Below are positions 30,938 through 35,675 of a stretch of 64,000 nucleotides of DNA, in pieces. The stretch spans positions 18,689-82,688 of the forward strand of contig WIXG01000341.1 of NCBI GenBank assembly GCA_009869945.1. Reading direction: 5' to 3'. Within the stretch, counting starts at the first letter, position 1. Each line of letters begins with the position of its first letter. The position numbers and the translations under genes are program-made. Below the pieces are notes generated by a model. That model did not search any database, was not told the origin of the DNA, and worked only from the letters and a program-made list of their open reading frames with translations. The DNA is from Mesaphorura yosii (lineage: Eukaryota; Arthropoda; Collembola; Poduromorpha; Tullbergiidae).

Positions 30938-33900
30938 ATGAAGATCATTTCATATCACTTGCATTTGATACCGTTTTCTTATTTTTTTATTTTGCTCAAT
31001 ATATGGAACTTTCAATCTTGTGCGAATGGAGAAAAGATTCCATTGGGTAAGTCTACAATTTTTTCTATTATCTATCTGCGGCCAATGCAGATATATAGTT
31101 GGATTAGCTTTGTTATTGAGTACTTCTTGTCTTATTGCCAGCTGCCATATTCGAACAAGGCACATCAGAAATTCAGACCGCGTTCAAATACGCATTGATG
31201 TACCACAATACAAACGACCATCGCGATGAGCTTCAGGCATACGTGGACATTATTAATACGGCAGATGCATTTAAGCTGTCAAGAATAAGTAAGTAGAGTC
31301 TCATTGGTTACCTTAAACTAAGATTCCATGTGACAGTTTCGCGTTTGAATATTCTCCAGTCTGTAACCAGTTTGCTCGTGGCGTGCTTGCAATGGTTGGC
31401 TCGATGAGTTCGGATTCATTCCAGACATTTCATTCGTACTCCAACACATTTCAAATGCCATTTGTTACACCGTGGTTCCCAACCACTGTAAGTTGGCCTC
31501 GGTCTTGGCCGTCGATTTCATTTGGCCAGGAATTGACTATTCGAACTTCTGTTTAGATGGAGATTCCTGGAATGGATTTCTCAACTCGTATTCAGCCGTC
31601 AGATCTGCATAGTGTCTTGTTGGACACCATCGAGTATTATGGGTGGAAAAACATCATTTACCTTTACAATACACATGAAGGTTGGTCGCAGGACCCGAAA
31701 TTTCCGAAATAACTTGTGATCCTGATTGCATTGACGCTAGAATTTACTTTGTTTCTTAGGCTTACTTCGACTTCAATCAGTTTTTCAAAGACTCGATTTT
31801 AAGAACGATTCATTGAGAGTCACTGCAGTGAAGAAAATAAATAACGCCAAAGAAGCTGTTTCCATCCTGCGAAACATTGAAGTTGGGGACAGATGGTCAA
31901 AGAAGTTTGTCATTCTCGACTGCCCGACGCCCTTGGCCAAGGACGTGATCATAAGTCACGTACGAGACGTACATCTCGGTCGCAGAACCTACCATTACCT
32001 TCTGGCAGGATTGGTACGACATTACACAGAAGTTTAAATGTTTTATGTTTGTCCAGTATGAATCTATAACTTCTCAATCTCTGTGAAGGCATTTGACGAC
32101 CCTTGGGACGAGTCAATTGTCGAATTCAGTGCGGTGAACATCACCGGCTTTCGTATTGTTGATCCGAATCGACCGATCGTGAAAGAATTTTTAAGAAAAT
32201 GGAAATCGCTTGATGCAACAACATTTCCCGGTGCTGGAACCAATGCTATTTCTGTACGTTCACGAATACACCGTTTAAGCGTTTCAATTTGTAGGTTAAT
32301 ATGCTCCGTTTTGTGAAAGTTCATAAATGTTGTATAGGCGTCTGCTGCGTTTATGTACGATGGGGTCACAGTTCTCAAAGAAGCGTTCACCCAAATTCTT
32401 AATTTTGATGCAACGTCATTGCGTCGGAATGCTTCTCGGCTATTCACGTGTGGCTCCGTGAATCCGGACGCAATCGATTCCAAGTACTTGTCCGTCAAGA
32501 AATTTGAACATGGAGAGCTTATTGCAAGGGAATTGCGTAAAGTAAGTCACCATCCTGCATCTGTTCGATGAAAATAAAAGAGAAACTGCAAACTAACTCG
32601 CGGGCTGCTTCGTGTAGGTTGAAATTGAGGGACTAACTGGACCGATCCAGTTCACAGACAAAGGACAGCGAGAGGGCTACACGATTGATTTGATGGAGAT
32701 GACGGCCCGAAGTGAAAAGAAAAAGGCATACAATTTTAGGGAATTATCCAGAAACTTGTAAGCTTATGCACAAACGTAAACGCACGAATGCCATTTCAGA
32801 TCGGCGAGTGGAAACAAGGTTTAGGACTGAAAGCGGCTGGAACCACACCCAAATACCCGTACTGCATCAACGGGACATCATGCAATATTACGTATGTCGT
32901 GACCAGCATCATTGTGAGTCAAGCCCTGCTATAATTATTGGCTTAATTAGTCTTGTCACACTTTGACTCATTCTCTTCGTAGGAGGAACCATTTTTGTCC
33001 ACACGAAAGGGTGAGAACGGCGAAATGTTTCAGGGTAACGATCGCTACGAAGGCTTTTGCAAAGACCTGGCAGATCTCATTGCGAAGAAGCTTAACATTA
33101 CATGTACGTGCAGTATAGCACATAGTATAACATACAAAATCCATTCCATTACGACATCCATTCTCTGGAATTAATTAATTGTCTCTTTGAAATACGAATA
33201 GATGAGCTCCGGATCGTGAAGGACAACATGTACGGAGTCGAGAATCCAAATTCGCCCGGTGGCTGGGACGGAATGGTCGGCGAGTTGATTCGAAAGGTAT
33301 TGTAATTTGTAGTTTTGACCGATTGAGTGACTTCCATGATAGAATCTATTCTGAAAACCTCTTACCACGCTTCGGCCACCTTTCTCTCTGCTCAACCTGT
33401 TGCACAGTACAGTAGCCCTTTCTCTCCCGACTCTCACCAACACAAAGCCATTGCACTCCAGCAGTTATTCCAGCAGCATAGAAAGTTTGTGTATTAACGC
33501 AGGAGGCACACATGGCAGTAGCACCTCTAACAATCACCGCCGCTCGCGAAGCTGTGATACAGTTCACAAAGCCATTCATGGAGCTAGGAATAAGTATAAT
33601 GATGAAGAAACCCGCTCACGTAATGCCAGGCGCATTCTCCTTCCTAAATCCGATGGATTATTTGGTCTGGGGCTGCACGGTTCTCGCCCTGGTTTCTGTT
33701 GCAACGGTTCTGTTAATTGTACAACGAACTCCGGACAATGCCCGGCACTGTACTCTCGTAAATACGCTTTGGTTTTCCATTGCGAGTATTTTTCGCCAAG
33801 AAACGTCAATCTATCCACGGTAAGCAAACACAAGCATTGTAGGAGGACAAAGCTTGAGTACAAACACGGCTTGAGGGTGTGAAAAGCGTGTTAAGAGGTT

Positions 33901-35675
33901 TCTGAATAAATTGAAGGCTTCGGTCGGTCCTTGATATGCGGTACTGTTCGCAGGAAGCTGACATGGCCATTTCTCCGCTGACAATCACGTCGGAAAGGGA
34001 GCGCGTGATTGATTTCTCCAAGCCATTCCTGAACCTCGGTATGCCTTTCGAAGCCCGTGTGTTTAAGTGGCTGACTGGAAATACTCGAAATACAGAGTCA
34101 TTTGAAATCCCTCGCAGGTATAAGCATAATGATTTATAAGCCCAAGAAGCACACGCAAGGAGTTTTTGGCTTCATGAGTCCGCTCTCGACGGACACTTGG
34201 ATTTGTGTCATATTCGCCTATATCGGGGTGTCAGTCATCTTATATCTTGTGACCCGGTTCAATCCAACCGAATGGGTGCAAGAGTCGGAGGGCAGAATAC
34301 ACACGCAGTTCTCGATACCGGACTCGCTTTGGTTTTCGCTGGCTTCACTTGTCCAGCAGGGGAGTGATAGGACTCCCAGGTAATTAATTAGCAATTGAGT
34401 GCTTCGAGTAGAATCGTTCTATTTTATTCAGAAACCTGCCAACATGCTTTTCACTGCCACTCTCTTGAATTTTAGACTTGAAATTTCTTTATTATTGTTG
34501 CCACACAGATCGTTTGCTGGTCGACTCGTGGGTAGCGTGTGGTGGTTCTTCACACTGATCCTGATTTCGTCGTACACTGCAAACTTTGCCGCAGTACGGA
34601 CTGTCAACCGCCTAAATCTGCCCATTAAATCTGCGGATGACCTTGCAAAACAACGTGACGTGCAATATGGGACGAGGGCCAGCGGCTCCACGATGGACTT
34701 TTTTAAGGTATACAAATGCCATTTGTATTTTGCCTTTGCAGCCAACGTAACCGAGTCTCAAATAAAGGTTTCCAAACGGTATCGACTTTTGTGTGTTGTA
34801 GAGATCAGAAATTGCCGTTTACAAGCGCATGTACGAATTTATGAGCACAACTCCAGGAGTCAACGTTGAGACATACGATAAAGGAATCGAGCGCGTCCGG
34901 GAAAAGAAAGGTAAATAGTGGCGTGTTGAGAGTATTGACGTCTAGATGCTGAAATCGCTTTACTTTCTAGGCAAGTATGCATTGCTGGTCGAATCGCCAA
35001 AGAATGACTACACAAATCAGGTAAACATATTATGCCAATTCTTGTGTCATAAATTACACCGTGCTGGTTCTGATTGAGTCCTGTTCTTTTGTTTTTTGTA
35101 GCGCAGGCCATGTGATACGATGAAAGTTGGCGAGAACTTGGACGCAAAGGGATTCGGCGTGGCTACGCCTCTTGGGTCACCTTTACAGTGAGTTGCCCAC
35201 TCTCTTTTTGTGAGGTTATTATTTTGACACGTATTTCCCATCCAGACATGATATCAATTTGATCGTGCTGGAAGCGAAGGAGAGCGGAGCACTCAGCAAG
35301 CTGGAGCATCGATGGTGGAGTGAACGGAGCGAATGTGATGTCTCGAACAAGGTCAGCGCAGTTGCTTGTTGCTTTCCAGACATCAACGCAACATAACGCT
35401 ATTTCAAGTATTAATTTCATACATTTTGTACGAATTTGCAGCAAGAAACGTCAGCCACAGACGACGAGCTCAGTCTCGGAAGTTTGGCCGGAATATTTTA
35501 CATTTTGATTATTGGACTCGTGCTGGCGATGACAGTCGCATTTGTTGAGTTTTGTTATCACTCTCGTCGAGACGCGAAAAAGTCTCAGGTTTCTTTGTCA
35601 GAAGCGATGAAGGCGAAGGCGAGAGTCACGATCGCTGGTCCGGCTCCGGAGAGTTTATGCAATTCGATGCATTAA
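30938..35675 (+). CDS. full-length kainate/AMPA-type ionotropic glutamate receptor D with alternative M1-pore exons
   Basis: Constant exons: 30938-31046, 31142-31288, 31360-31487, 31557-31680, 31760-32013, 32089-32253, 32338-32541, 32618-32725, 32800-32913, 32983-33103, 33202-33296, then (after one cassette) 34509-34707, 34802-34910, 34971-35020, 35102-35187, 35246-35351, 35442-35675. With cassette 2 the product is 899 residues, with cassette 1 it is 889. Order: signal peptide, LIVBP-like amino-terminal domain ([20 protein letters not shown]), S1 ([28 protein letters not shown]), M1, pore, M3 ([19 protein letters not shown]), S2 ([22 protein letters not shown]), M4 ([21 protein letters not shown]). 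Cassette 2 has the canonical pore. The intron at 32726-32799 appears to be GC-AG; the alternative GT donor there breaks the frame. The product is a postsynaptic-type glutamate-gated cation channel. Confidence 0.87.
33503..33819 (+). other. alternative cassette 1 of receptor D (end of S1, M1, divergent pore)
   Basis: A single 317-bp exon with a clean acceptor (TTAACGCAG) and donor (CACGGTAAGC). It starts in phase 0 after the LIRK exon and ends in phase 2, ready to join the exon at 34509. It codes [36 protein letters not shown]1 ([20 protein letters not shown]) and a pore loop [16 protein letters not shown]. Against the usual LVQQGSD, the residues around the Q/R site are changed: Gln-Gln-Gly-x-Asp becomes Arg-Gln-Glu-Thr-Ser. 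The M1-pore linker is ten residues shorter than in cassette 2. Confidence 0.8.
33954..34379 (+). other. alternative cassette 2 of receptor D (end of S1, M1, canonical pore)
   Basis: Two exons, 33954-34038 and 34118-34379, total 347 bp and have the same entry phase (0) and exit phase (2) as cassette 1. They code [27 protein letters not shown], then [13 protein letters not shown]1 ([20 protein letters not shown]) and the pore loop [16 protein letters not shown] with the standard Q/R-site context. An intron at the FLNLG/GISI point is present here and absent from cassette 1, so the duplication is not recent or one copy lost its intron. Confidence 0.82.

What the first reader, a model, noticed from the sequence alone, without database searches (positions are those of the whole stretch)
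33503..34379. Receptor D can choose between two pore cassettes by mutually exclusive splicing
Seen: two adjacent homologous exon blocks each code the end of S1, M1 and the pore loop of the same glutamate receptor, both entering in phase 0 and leaving in phase 2. The constant exons total 2353 bp, so one cassette (317 or 347 bp) keeps the frame while none or both breaks it. The pores differ: LVQQGSD in cassette 2, IFRQETS in cassette 1, with charge changes beside the Q/R site. Known: Q/R-site residues set calcium permeability, conductance and polyamine block in AMPA and kainate receptors. Inference: the neuron switches ion selectivity by exon choice, where vertebrates use RNA editing, and vertebrate flip/flop splicing alters another region.
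Basis: partly seen in the sequence, partly recalled or inferred. Interest (0 to 1): 0.88.

Follow-up and report, generated by a model that had tools for sequence, protein, structure and literature searches.

The report
Springtail glutamate receptor with swappable pore
A springtail-like glutamate receptor gene carries two alternative exon blocks for its ion pore, one with glutamine and one with arginine at the position that in mammals is switched by RNA editing, and its introns hold competing matching sequences that look built to let only one block be chosen.

Summary
Confirmed. Gene D (30938-35675) is an AMPA-type glutamate receptor, closest to springtail proteins. Between two constant exons lie cassette 1 (C1, one exon, 317 nt) and cassette 2 (C2, two exons, 347 nt). 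Either gives an open 889- or 899-aa receptor; none or both stops early. Aligned with solved AMPA receptors, C2 has glutamine (CAG) and C1 arginine (CGC) exactly at the Q/R site; C1 also loses the conserved +4 aspartate. C1 keeps 28 of 32 highly conserved positions, against 23 of 74 others, so it is hardly a relic. New: the intron between the cassettes carries an element that can pair either with the intron before C1 or with that after C2, over overlapping bases; pattern searches find these arm cores nowhere else in the genome. Folding predicts one pairing or the other, depending on which arm is available. This is the anatomy of a competing RNA switch, so mutually exclusive splicing is the best explanation. 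A kainate-like receptor elsewhere in the genome (contig C69) also has two pore exons, with Gly or Gln at the site, but no such arms were found. Not shown: transcripts, conservation, currents. My searches found no report of alternative pore exons in a glutamate receptor.

The parts
30938..35675 (+). Receptor D gene, AMPA-type ionotropic glutamate receptor (17 constant exons plus one cassette)
33202..33296 (+). Constant exon before the cassettes (leaves in phase 0)
33297..33502 (+). Intron U, 206 nt, longest of the gene; holds a pyrimidine-rich tract (18 of 20)
33317..33372 (+). U arm (selector): 33317-33327, 33347-33351 and 33355-33372 can pair with intron M
33503..33819 (+). Cassette 1 (C1), one exon, 317 nt: end of S1, M1, pore loop IFRQETS
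33794..33796 (+). Q/R-site codon of C1: CGC, arginine
   Evidence: alignments
33820..33953 (+). Intron M between the cassettes, 134 nt
33879..33910 (+). M element (docking site): can pair with the D arm over 32 nt (88% complementary) or, through 33884-33901, with the U arm over 18 nt (94%)
33919..33929 (+). M extension that can pair with 33317-33327 of U (11 bp, with G-U)
33954..34038 (+). Cassette 2, first exon (C2a), 85 nt
34118..34379 (+). Cassette 2, second exon (C2b), 262 nt: M1 and pore loop LVQQGSD
34354..34356 (+). Q/R-site codon of C2: CAG, glutamine
34380..34508 (+). Intron D, 129 nt
34423..34454 (+). D arm (selector): complementary to the M element; at 3 mismatches or fewer the pattern is found in the genome only here and, inverted, in M
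34509..34707 (+). Constant exon after the cassettes (M3, start of S2; enters in phase 2)

Best explanation
Receptor D is an AMPA-type glutamate receptor whose pore segment is chosen by mutually exclusive splicing of two tandem cassettes, controlled by a two-state RNA switch in the pre-mRNA. The docking element in the middle intron (33879-33910) pairs with the U arm or with the D arm, not both, because both use bases 33884-33901. U:M pairing loops out C1 and brings the upstream donor close to C2 (58 + 52 nt left outside the core helix). M:D pairing loops out both C2 exons and brings the C1 donor close to the downstream acceptor (59 + 54 nt). Errors that use none or both shift the frame and stop early, and should be removed by nonsense-mediated decay. 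The products differ at the Q/R site: Q with +4 Asp in C2 (calcium-permeable, polyamine-blocked type) against R with +4 Ser in C1 (expected low calcium permeability, little polyamine block, low conductance). Shown by computation: exon anatomy, frames, Q/R identity, constraint on C1, the two possible pairings, their overlap and rarity in the genome. Inferred: that both transcripts are made, which pairing yields which cassette, and the currents.
For: Frames and products. C1 is constrained: it keeps 28 of 32 columns conserved at 95% or more in 30 other rows against 23 of 74 other columns, Fisher p 5.7e-8; third codon positions are 31% identical to C2 against 67% at second positions; neutral decay to 45-55% identity leaves no stop in only 4-6% of 2000 simulations per target. 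Splice sites: C1 donor scores 10.0 (16 constant donors, left out in turn, 1.0-9.5), C1 acceptor 3.7, inside the constant range -4.5 to 10.6. Introns U, M, D (206, 134, 129 nt) are the three longest of 19; the other 16 are 58-98 nt. Pairings: M:D and U:M rank 1 and 2 of all 171 intron pairs of the gene. RNAduplex: 0 of 300 shuffles reach either, while U:D (266 of 300), U:I2 (245), I2:D (142) and M:I2 (37) show nothing (I2 is the intron inside C2). Watson-Crick-only score: M:D 0 of 2000 shuffles, U:M 1 of 2000, U:D 1505 of 2000. In 93 Mb the 15-nt M/D core is found only in M and, inverted, in D; the 18-nt M/U core (one free base) only in M and, inverted, in U; the 32-nt arm (four free bases, up to 3 mismatches) only in D and, inverted, in M. 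Folding of 33202-34560: M pairs with D at P 1.0 unmasked; with the D arm masked, or before it is transcribed, M pairs with U at P 1.0; ensemble energies -412.5 (only U:M possible) and -414.0 (only M:D possible) against -389.7 with neither. Residues.
Against: No transcript from this species. No relative with a C1-like cassette among the 40 proteins that a C1-directed search returned, although that search is narrow and the database is clustered at 90%, which could hide isoforms. A weaker, gapped pairing score was reached by 4 of 600 shuffles for U:M: U is pyrimidine-rich and M is not, which helps chance pairing. The unmasked fold prefers M:D completely, so a U:M state must rely on co-transcriptional folding or proteins. 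RNAduplex also pairs the first 8 nt of intron U, the donor itself, with 33937-33944 of M; if that weak helix formed, it would hide the donor. A loop can also promote splicing (PMC10790352, passages), so the direction could be reversed. A second gene with two pore exons in this genome (C69) shows no such arms, so arms are not a general need. C1 changes many M1 and pore residues, so function could be lost rather than altered; and in a placozoan receptor arginine at this site raised rectification (PMC12226733, passages).
Confidence: 0.8

Rival explanations
1. C1 is a relic: a duplicated exon no longer used, and all transcripts carry C2.
For: The C1 branch is very long (2.22 changes per site); no annotated relative carries it; springtail orthologues P0003 and P0004 are annotated with a C2-like pore.
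Against: Open frame, correct phases, good splice sites, 28 of 32 conserved columns kept, and arms on both sides whose cores were found nowhere else in the genome.
Confidence: 0.06
2. Both cassettes are used exclusively, but the C1 isoform does not change selectivity usefully: four arginines and an altered M1 make it a nearly silent or dominant-negative subunit that tunes current size or trafficking.
For: Arginine homotetramers conduct poorly (PMC12226733, passages); C1 lacks 10 residues of the M1-M2 loop and is at most 53% identical to any other cassette compared.
Against: C1 keeps the ligand-site stretch PLTIT..R, a clear M1 (best 19-residue hydropathy 2.50) and 28 of 32 conserved columns. 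In vertebrates R subunits work well in mixed receptors (recalled).
Confidence: 0.3
3. The cassettes are alternatives, but exclusivity comes only from frame-breaking and decay (as suggested for flip/flop); the intron arms serve something else, such as back-splicing into circular RNA or double-stranded RNA for ADAR.
For: Paired introns can promote back-splicing (PMC10790352, passages); decay may police flip/flop (PMC8257547, passages); a second two-pore-exon gene at C69 shows no arms.
Against: Three arms with overlapping use of the middle one are what exclusivity needs and are not needed for circles or editing; the arms loop out each cassette separately.
Confidence: 0.1
4. Assembly artefact or misjoined haplotype.
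For: Draft assembly of 1127 contigs; no reads available.
Against: C1 and C2 are far too different to be alleles (42% identity), a genome-wide search shows no other copy of C1, and the flanks fit one gene.
Confidence: 0.02

Closest known systems
Vertebrate AMPA receptor flip/flop exons
   Same: Tandem, mutually exclusive exons (115 nt) in the same receptor family; wrong combinations thought to be removed by decay (PMC8257547, passages)
   Different: Flip/flop alters the end of S2 at the dimer interface, not S1-M1-pore; no further mechanism that enforces it has been described (same passages)
GluA2 Q/R-site RNA editing by ADAR
   Same: Result: Q or R at the same pore residue of an AMPA-type receptor (editing: PMC8257547 and PMC12226733, passages)
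   Different: Here the choice is a whole exon block with a genomic CGC codon, with further changes at +2 to +4 and in M1; no deamination needed
Competing docking-site/selector structures (Dscam, 14-3-3zeta, Mhc, MRP1, srp)
   Same: Intronic arms that compete for one partner and loop out exons (PMC6071210, abstract and introduction; PMC8042237, passages)
   Different: Only two cassettes, one of them two exons; a single central docking element used from both sides; a glutamate receptor
Human ATE1 exons 7a/7b (R1 and R4 compete for R3)
   Same: Two alternatives, and two arms that compete for one (PMC11802352, passages; the primary paper was not held)
   Different: Different gene and phylum; I saw no detail of arm positions beyond that passage
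Mutually exclusive exons of arthropod voltage-gated channels (recalled)
   Same: Ion-channel properties tuned by exon choice
   Different: Different channel family; recalled, not tested here

Membership tests
AMPA-type ionotropic glutamate receptor | Domain order ATD, S1, M1, pore, M3, S2 with closest similarity to GluA among solved receptors | tested here: met
   Pfam (whole isoforms); the best 60 PDB sequences shown for the binding-and-channel part of each isoform are GluA (searches matched); protein search
AMPA-type ionotropic glutamate receptor | Glutamate-site residues in S1 (P, T, R of PLTIT..R) present in both cassettes | tested here: met
   alignment (residue roles recalled)
AMPA-type ionotropic glutamate receptor | Glutamate-gated cation current | not testable with these tools
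   needs recording
Mutually exclusive exon cluster | Adjacent homologous exons of equal entry and exit phase; none or both breaks the frame | tested here: met
Mutually exclusive exon cluster | Transcripts carry exactly one of them | not testable with these tools
   no RNA data held
Docking/selector competing RNA structure | Two arms complementary to overlapping bases of one element, beyond chance | tested here: met
Docking/selector competing RNA structure | Pairing kept by compensatory changes in related species | not testable with these tools
   no related genome held
Docking/selector competing RNA structure | Mutating the arms changes exon choice | not testable with these tools
   needs minigenes
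Q/R-site switch | One gene can code both Q and R at the site aligned with GluA2 Q/R | tested here: met
   CAG at 34354 and CGC at 33794; alignments with GluA; coding capacity only
AMPA flip/flop | Alternative exon at the end of S2 before M4 | tested here: not met
   cassettes cover end of S1 to the pore loop

The most novel reading that the evidence does not exclude
A springtail AMPA receptor gene sets its Q/R-site residue, and so its calcium permeability and polyamine block, with a bistable intronic RNA switch that selects one of two ancient pore cassettes: the same endpoint as vertebrate Q/R editing, reached without editing. The cassette pair may predate the springtail radiation, since C1 as sister of C2 is rejected (p 0.0185) and C1 lacks springtail-typical residues. 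U:M can form first during transcription while M:D wins in the finished transcript, so transcription speed or temperature could set the ratio. A second receptor of the same genome (C69) also offers two pore exons, with Gly or Gln at the site, so choosing the pore by exon may be a habit of this lineage.
Probability: 0.5. Interest if true: 0.9.

Novelty: new variant of a known kind. Interest (0 to 1): 0.8.

Why it matters
The Q/R site is one of the best known single residues in neuroscience, and vertebrates spend an editing machinery on it. A genome that offers both residues as alternative exons, with a readable RNA switch, would be an independent solution to the same problem. It would let the value of Q against R be tested by exon choice, and would add glutamate receptors to the short list of genes with competing-structure splicing.

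Tried and rejected
First exon model used the GT donor at 32758; it put the later exons out of frame. The GC donor at 32726 restored the frame and matches the exon border in paralogues L012 and L013.

Second cassettes at other receptor loci: I first wrote that there was none. Re-reading one search showed two pore segments at L009 (C69), followed up and now reported as a second candidate case. The other 18 of the 19 loci held showed none, but the 64 channel-domain matches were not all fetched. Genome-wide, C1 gave 15 matches from 19 scored candidates: C1 itself, the two C2 exons, and other receptors at 28-51% identity.

Prawn protein P0141 (labelled isoform X2) first looked like a second case: it has H at the Q/R site and R at +2. 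Its sequence and its 69-72% identity to decapod proteins over the region searched point to a divergent paralogue, not to a cassette.

A 63-nt similarity search with the M element found only itself and missed the D arm; it is too blunt, and exact patterns were used instead. Base-pair-blocking constraints gave implausible energies and are not used; masking replaced them.

Tree: of 33 proteins chosen from the 160 fetched by then, 4 (P0115, P0183, P0126, P0130) fell out of the automatic cassette extraction; 29 plus four own cassettes were used. C1 has a long branch; C1 with the D lineage (p 0.074) or with all springtail rows (p 0.29) is not rejected, so the old age of C1 is a lead only.

A tRNA scan found none.
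Full report
WHAT IS THERE. The window lies on contig C341 of a 93-Mb assembly of 1127 contigs. The gene at 30938-35675 codes for an ionotropic glutamate receptor. Leaving aside two repeated or fused gene models listed above them (P0001, P0002), its best annotated relatives are springtail proteins: Allacma fusca P0003 (74% identity over 99% of residues 440-890) and Orchesella dallaii P0004 (71%) (both Collembola). 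That the source is a springtail is inference from this. The binding-and-channel part of each isoform (472 and 462 aa) matches AMPA receptors best among solved structures. Pfam finds the amino-terminal domain, the glutamate-binding part and the channel in both isoforms.

THE CASSETTES. Seventeen constant exons total 2353 nt. C1 is one exon of 317 nt, C2 two exons of 85 and 262 nt. One cassette restores the frame (889 or 899 aa); none stops at codon 532, both at codon 638, and four partial mixes stop at 525-638. The outer borders of the cassette are shared exon borders: paralogues at L012 and L013 split the coding sequence at the same two places, before E-A-D and after S-P-R, with an inner intron at another place. 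So a duplication of the exon block between two existing introns gives a clean swap.

THE PORE. In the alignments with GluA receptors and with 32 other cassette rows, C2 reads L-V-Q-Q-G-S-D and C1 reads I-F-R-Q-E-T-S over the canonical F-M-Q-Q-G-C-D. The Q/R site is the first Q of this motif (recalled; consistent with the +4 aspartate named in PMC12226733, passages). The codons are CAG at 34354 (C2) and CGC at 33794 (C1). Among 196 pore segments in 192 fetched proteins the automatic count gave Q 188, H 4, R 1 and I 3, the last three from garbled gene models; the sample is the top of three searches and not random. The single R is a Schistocerca nitens protein (P0055). C1 also has Ser for the conserved +4 Asp. 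In published work, neutralising +4 removes polyamine block, and receptors with four arginines conduct poorly; in the placozoan receptor of the same paper arginine at the site raised rectification (PMC12226733, passages). So the expected current of C1 is a guess from mixed data.

C1 IS UNDER CONSTRAINT. C1 is only 42% identical to C2, yet it keeps 28 of the 32 columns that are at least 95% conserved in 30 other AMPA-type rows, and 23 of 74 other columns (Fisher p 5.7e-8). The four lost are D3H, L51M, S67A and the +4 D102S. In residues 1-37, the ligand-binding part, it keeps 28 of 37 consensus residues, in the rest 23 of 69. Against C2, codon positions 1, 2 and 3 are 53%, 67% and 31% identical; pN 0.415, pS 0.757, saturated. 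A neutral copy decaying to 45-55% identity would be free of stops in 4-6% of simulations, before counting frameshifts. Rows are related, so the Fisher value is a guide.

AGE. C1 is closer to some mollusc, chelicerate and tunicate cassettes (up to 53%) than to C2 or other springtail cassettes (41-46%) and lacks the springtail-typical I-M-[IV]-Y-K-P. C1 as sister of C2 is rejected (AU p 0.0185); C1 with the D lineage (0.074) or with all springtail rows (0.29) is not. The branch is long (2.22), so an origin before the springtail radiation is a lead and not a result.

THE SWITCH. The three introns around the cassettes, U (206 nt), M (134) and D (129), are the longest of the gene's 19; the other 16 are 58-98 nt. 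A plain inverted-repeat search of the block returns first 33879-33910 with 34423-34454 (32 nt, 88% complementary) and second 33355-33372 with 33884-33901 (18 nt, 94%). The M bases of the second lie inside those of the first, so both cannot form at once. U:M adds 11 bp (33317-33327 with 33919-33929), 5 bp and weaker pieces, one of which would cover the upstream donor. Among all 171 pairs of introns of the gene, M:D and U:M are first and second in complementarity. Shuffles that reach the observed value, for U:M, M:D and U:D: RNAduplex 0, 0 and 266 of 300; Watson-Crick-only 1, 0 and 1505 of 2000; a gapped score 4, 0 and 525 of 600. Genome-wide, the M/D core of 15 nt, the M/U core of 18 nt (one free base) and the 32-nt arm (four free bases, up to 3 mismatches) are each found exactly twice, once in each partner. 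So the arms do not look like a dispersed repeat.

HOW IT WOULD WORK. U:M loops out 33373-33883, which holds C1, and leaves 58 nt and 52 nt between the upstream donor, the core helix and the C2 acceptor. M:D loops out 33911-34422, which holds both C2 exons, and leaves 59 and 54 nt on the way from the C1 donor to the downstream acceptor. Both sums (110 and 113) are a little above the gene's ordinary introns. In folding of 33202-34560, M pairs with D with probability 1.0; with the D arm masked M pairs with U (probability 1.0, 40 pairs expected); with neither arm available the ensemble is 23-24 kcal/mol weaker; the two single-arm states differ by 1.5 kcal/mol. In transcripts cut at 33960, 34120 and 34400, before the D arm, U:M forms with probability 1.0. 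Hence the prediction that C2 is favoured early and C1 when the D arm has time to compete. Such folds of long RNA are models only. Looping out as a cause of skipping, and the caution that a loop can also promote splicing, are from PMC10790352 (passages); competing structures as the major mechanism of exclusive exons from PMC6071210 (abstract and introduction). The latter also argues that duplications copying one arm of a stem create such switches; here the U and D arms must resemble each other, since both match M, which fits.

A SECOND CANDIDATE. On contig C69 (L009) a kainate-like receptor (54% identical to a fish GluK3 over the M1 exon) has two pore exon blocks between its M1 and M3 exons: one exon of 132 nt (206920-207051) reading S-M-M-G-Q-G-S-D, Gly at the Q/R position, and a pair of 119 + 19 nt (207450-207568, 207646-207664, the second with a GC donor) reading S-L-M-Q-Q-G-S-D, Gln. 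Both blocks keep the frame by themselves, so none or both would also stay open. No intron-intron pairing there stands out from shuffles (six pairs, 300 shuffles each, 110-300 reach the observed value); the best inverted repeat joins the first exon to the middle intron (21 nt, 90%). It is less complete evidence than D and serves as a contrast: the arms are special to D.

KNOWN OR NEW. Exclusive exons whose wrong combinations are removed are known for AMPA flip/flop (PMC8257547, passages), where no further mechanism has been described. Two arms competing for one are known in ATE1 (PMC11802352, passages) and in Dscam-type clusters (PMC8042237, passages). In my searches for alternative pore exons of glutamate receptors (open-licence papers only, 4-20 titles and abstract starts seen per search) none reported one; the main text of the metazoan survey PMC6307864 has no word beginning 'splic'. 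So the pieces are known kinds; the combination, a Q/R choice by exon in a glutamate receptor with a readable switch, appears new.

LIMITS. No RNA, no relative genome, no recordings. The protein database is clustered at 90%, and two isoforms that differ only in the cassette would fall in one cluster. The C1-directed search (254 candidates, 40 hits, best 51% identical, none named as springtail) did not list the springtail C2-type proteins either, so the absence of annotated C1 relatives says little.

Noticed in passing
L009 (genome C69:205000-214900) 1608-2968: A kainate-like receptor with two pore exon blocks in tandem, Gly (SMMGQGSD) or Gln (SLMQQGSD) at the Q/R position: a second candidate for pore choice by splicing in the same genome, without frame enforcement and without competing intron arms.
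   Followed up: partly
L014 (genome C6:575000-580500), about 3136-2954 (-): Another kainate-like receptor whose only pore segment found reads TLLRQGSGLNPK: arginine at the Q/R position in the genomic sequence and no acidic residue at +4.
   Followed up: no
window 3848-5161, 25337-26345, 28412-30195 (+): Three further, strongly divergent glutamate-receptor-like genes or fragments stand upstream of receptor D in the same orientation, forming a tandem array; the third has an M3-like SAYTAN motif but no canonical pore seen.
   Followed up: partly
window 33380-33435: Intron U carries pyrimidine-rich stretches (up to 18 of 20) well upstream of the C1 acceptor, whose own tract is weak; possible binding sites of a PTB-type repressor (recalled motif, not tested).
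   Followed up: partly
window 32726-32799: A GC-AG intron in receptor D, with a GT donor 32 nt downstream that would break the frame.
   Followed up: partly
P0055 (Schistocerca nitens), P0141, P0162 (Palaemon), P0168 (Portunus), P0170 (Meganyctiphanes): Annotated arthropod AMPA-type proteins with arginine (one) or histidine (four) at the Q/R site in the listed sequence; genomic departures from Q that deserve a survey.
   Followed up: no
window 22358-23929 (+): A 524-codon stop-to-stop frame coding a CorA-type Mg2+ transporter (Pfam 6.6e-32) with a G-M-N motif; its solved relatives are all named CorA. Possible horizontal transfer or a native single-exon gene.
   Followed up: partly
window 36271-36825 (-): Innexin gene (Pfam 7e-41) directly downstream of receptor D on the other strand.
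   Followed up: no
genome G000: Many matches of the glutamate receptor channel domain lie in single open frames of about 500-800 codons spread over the genome, perhaps a large ionotropic-receptor (IR) expansion.
   Followed up: no
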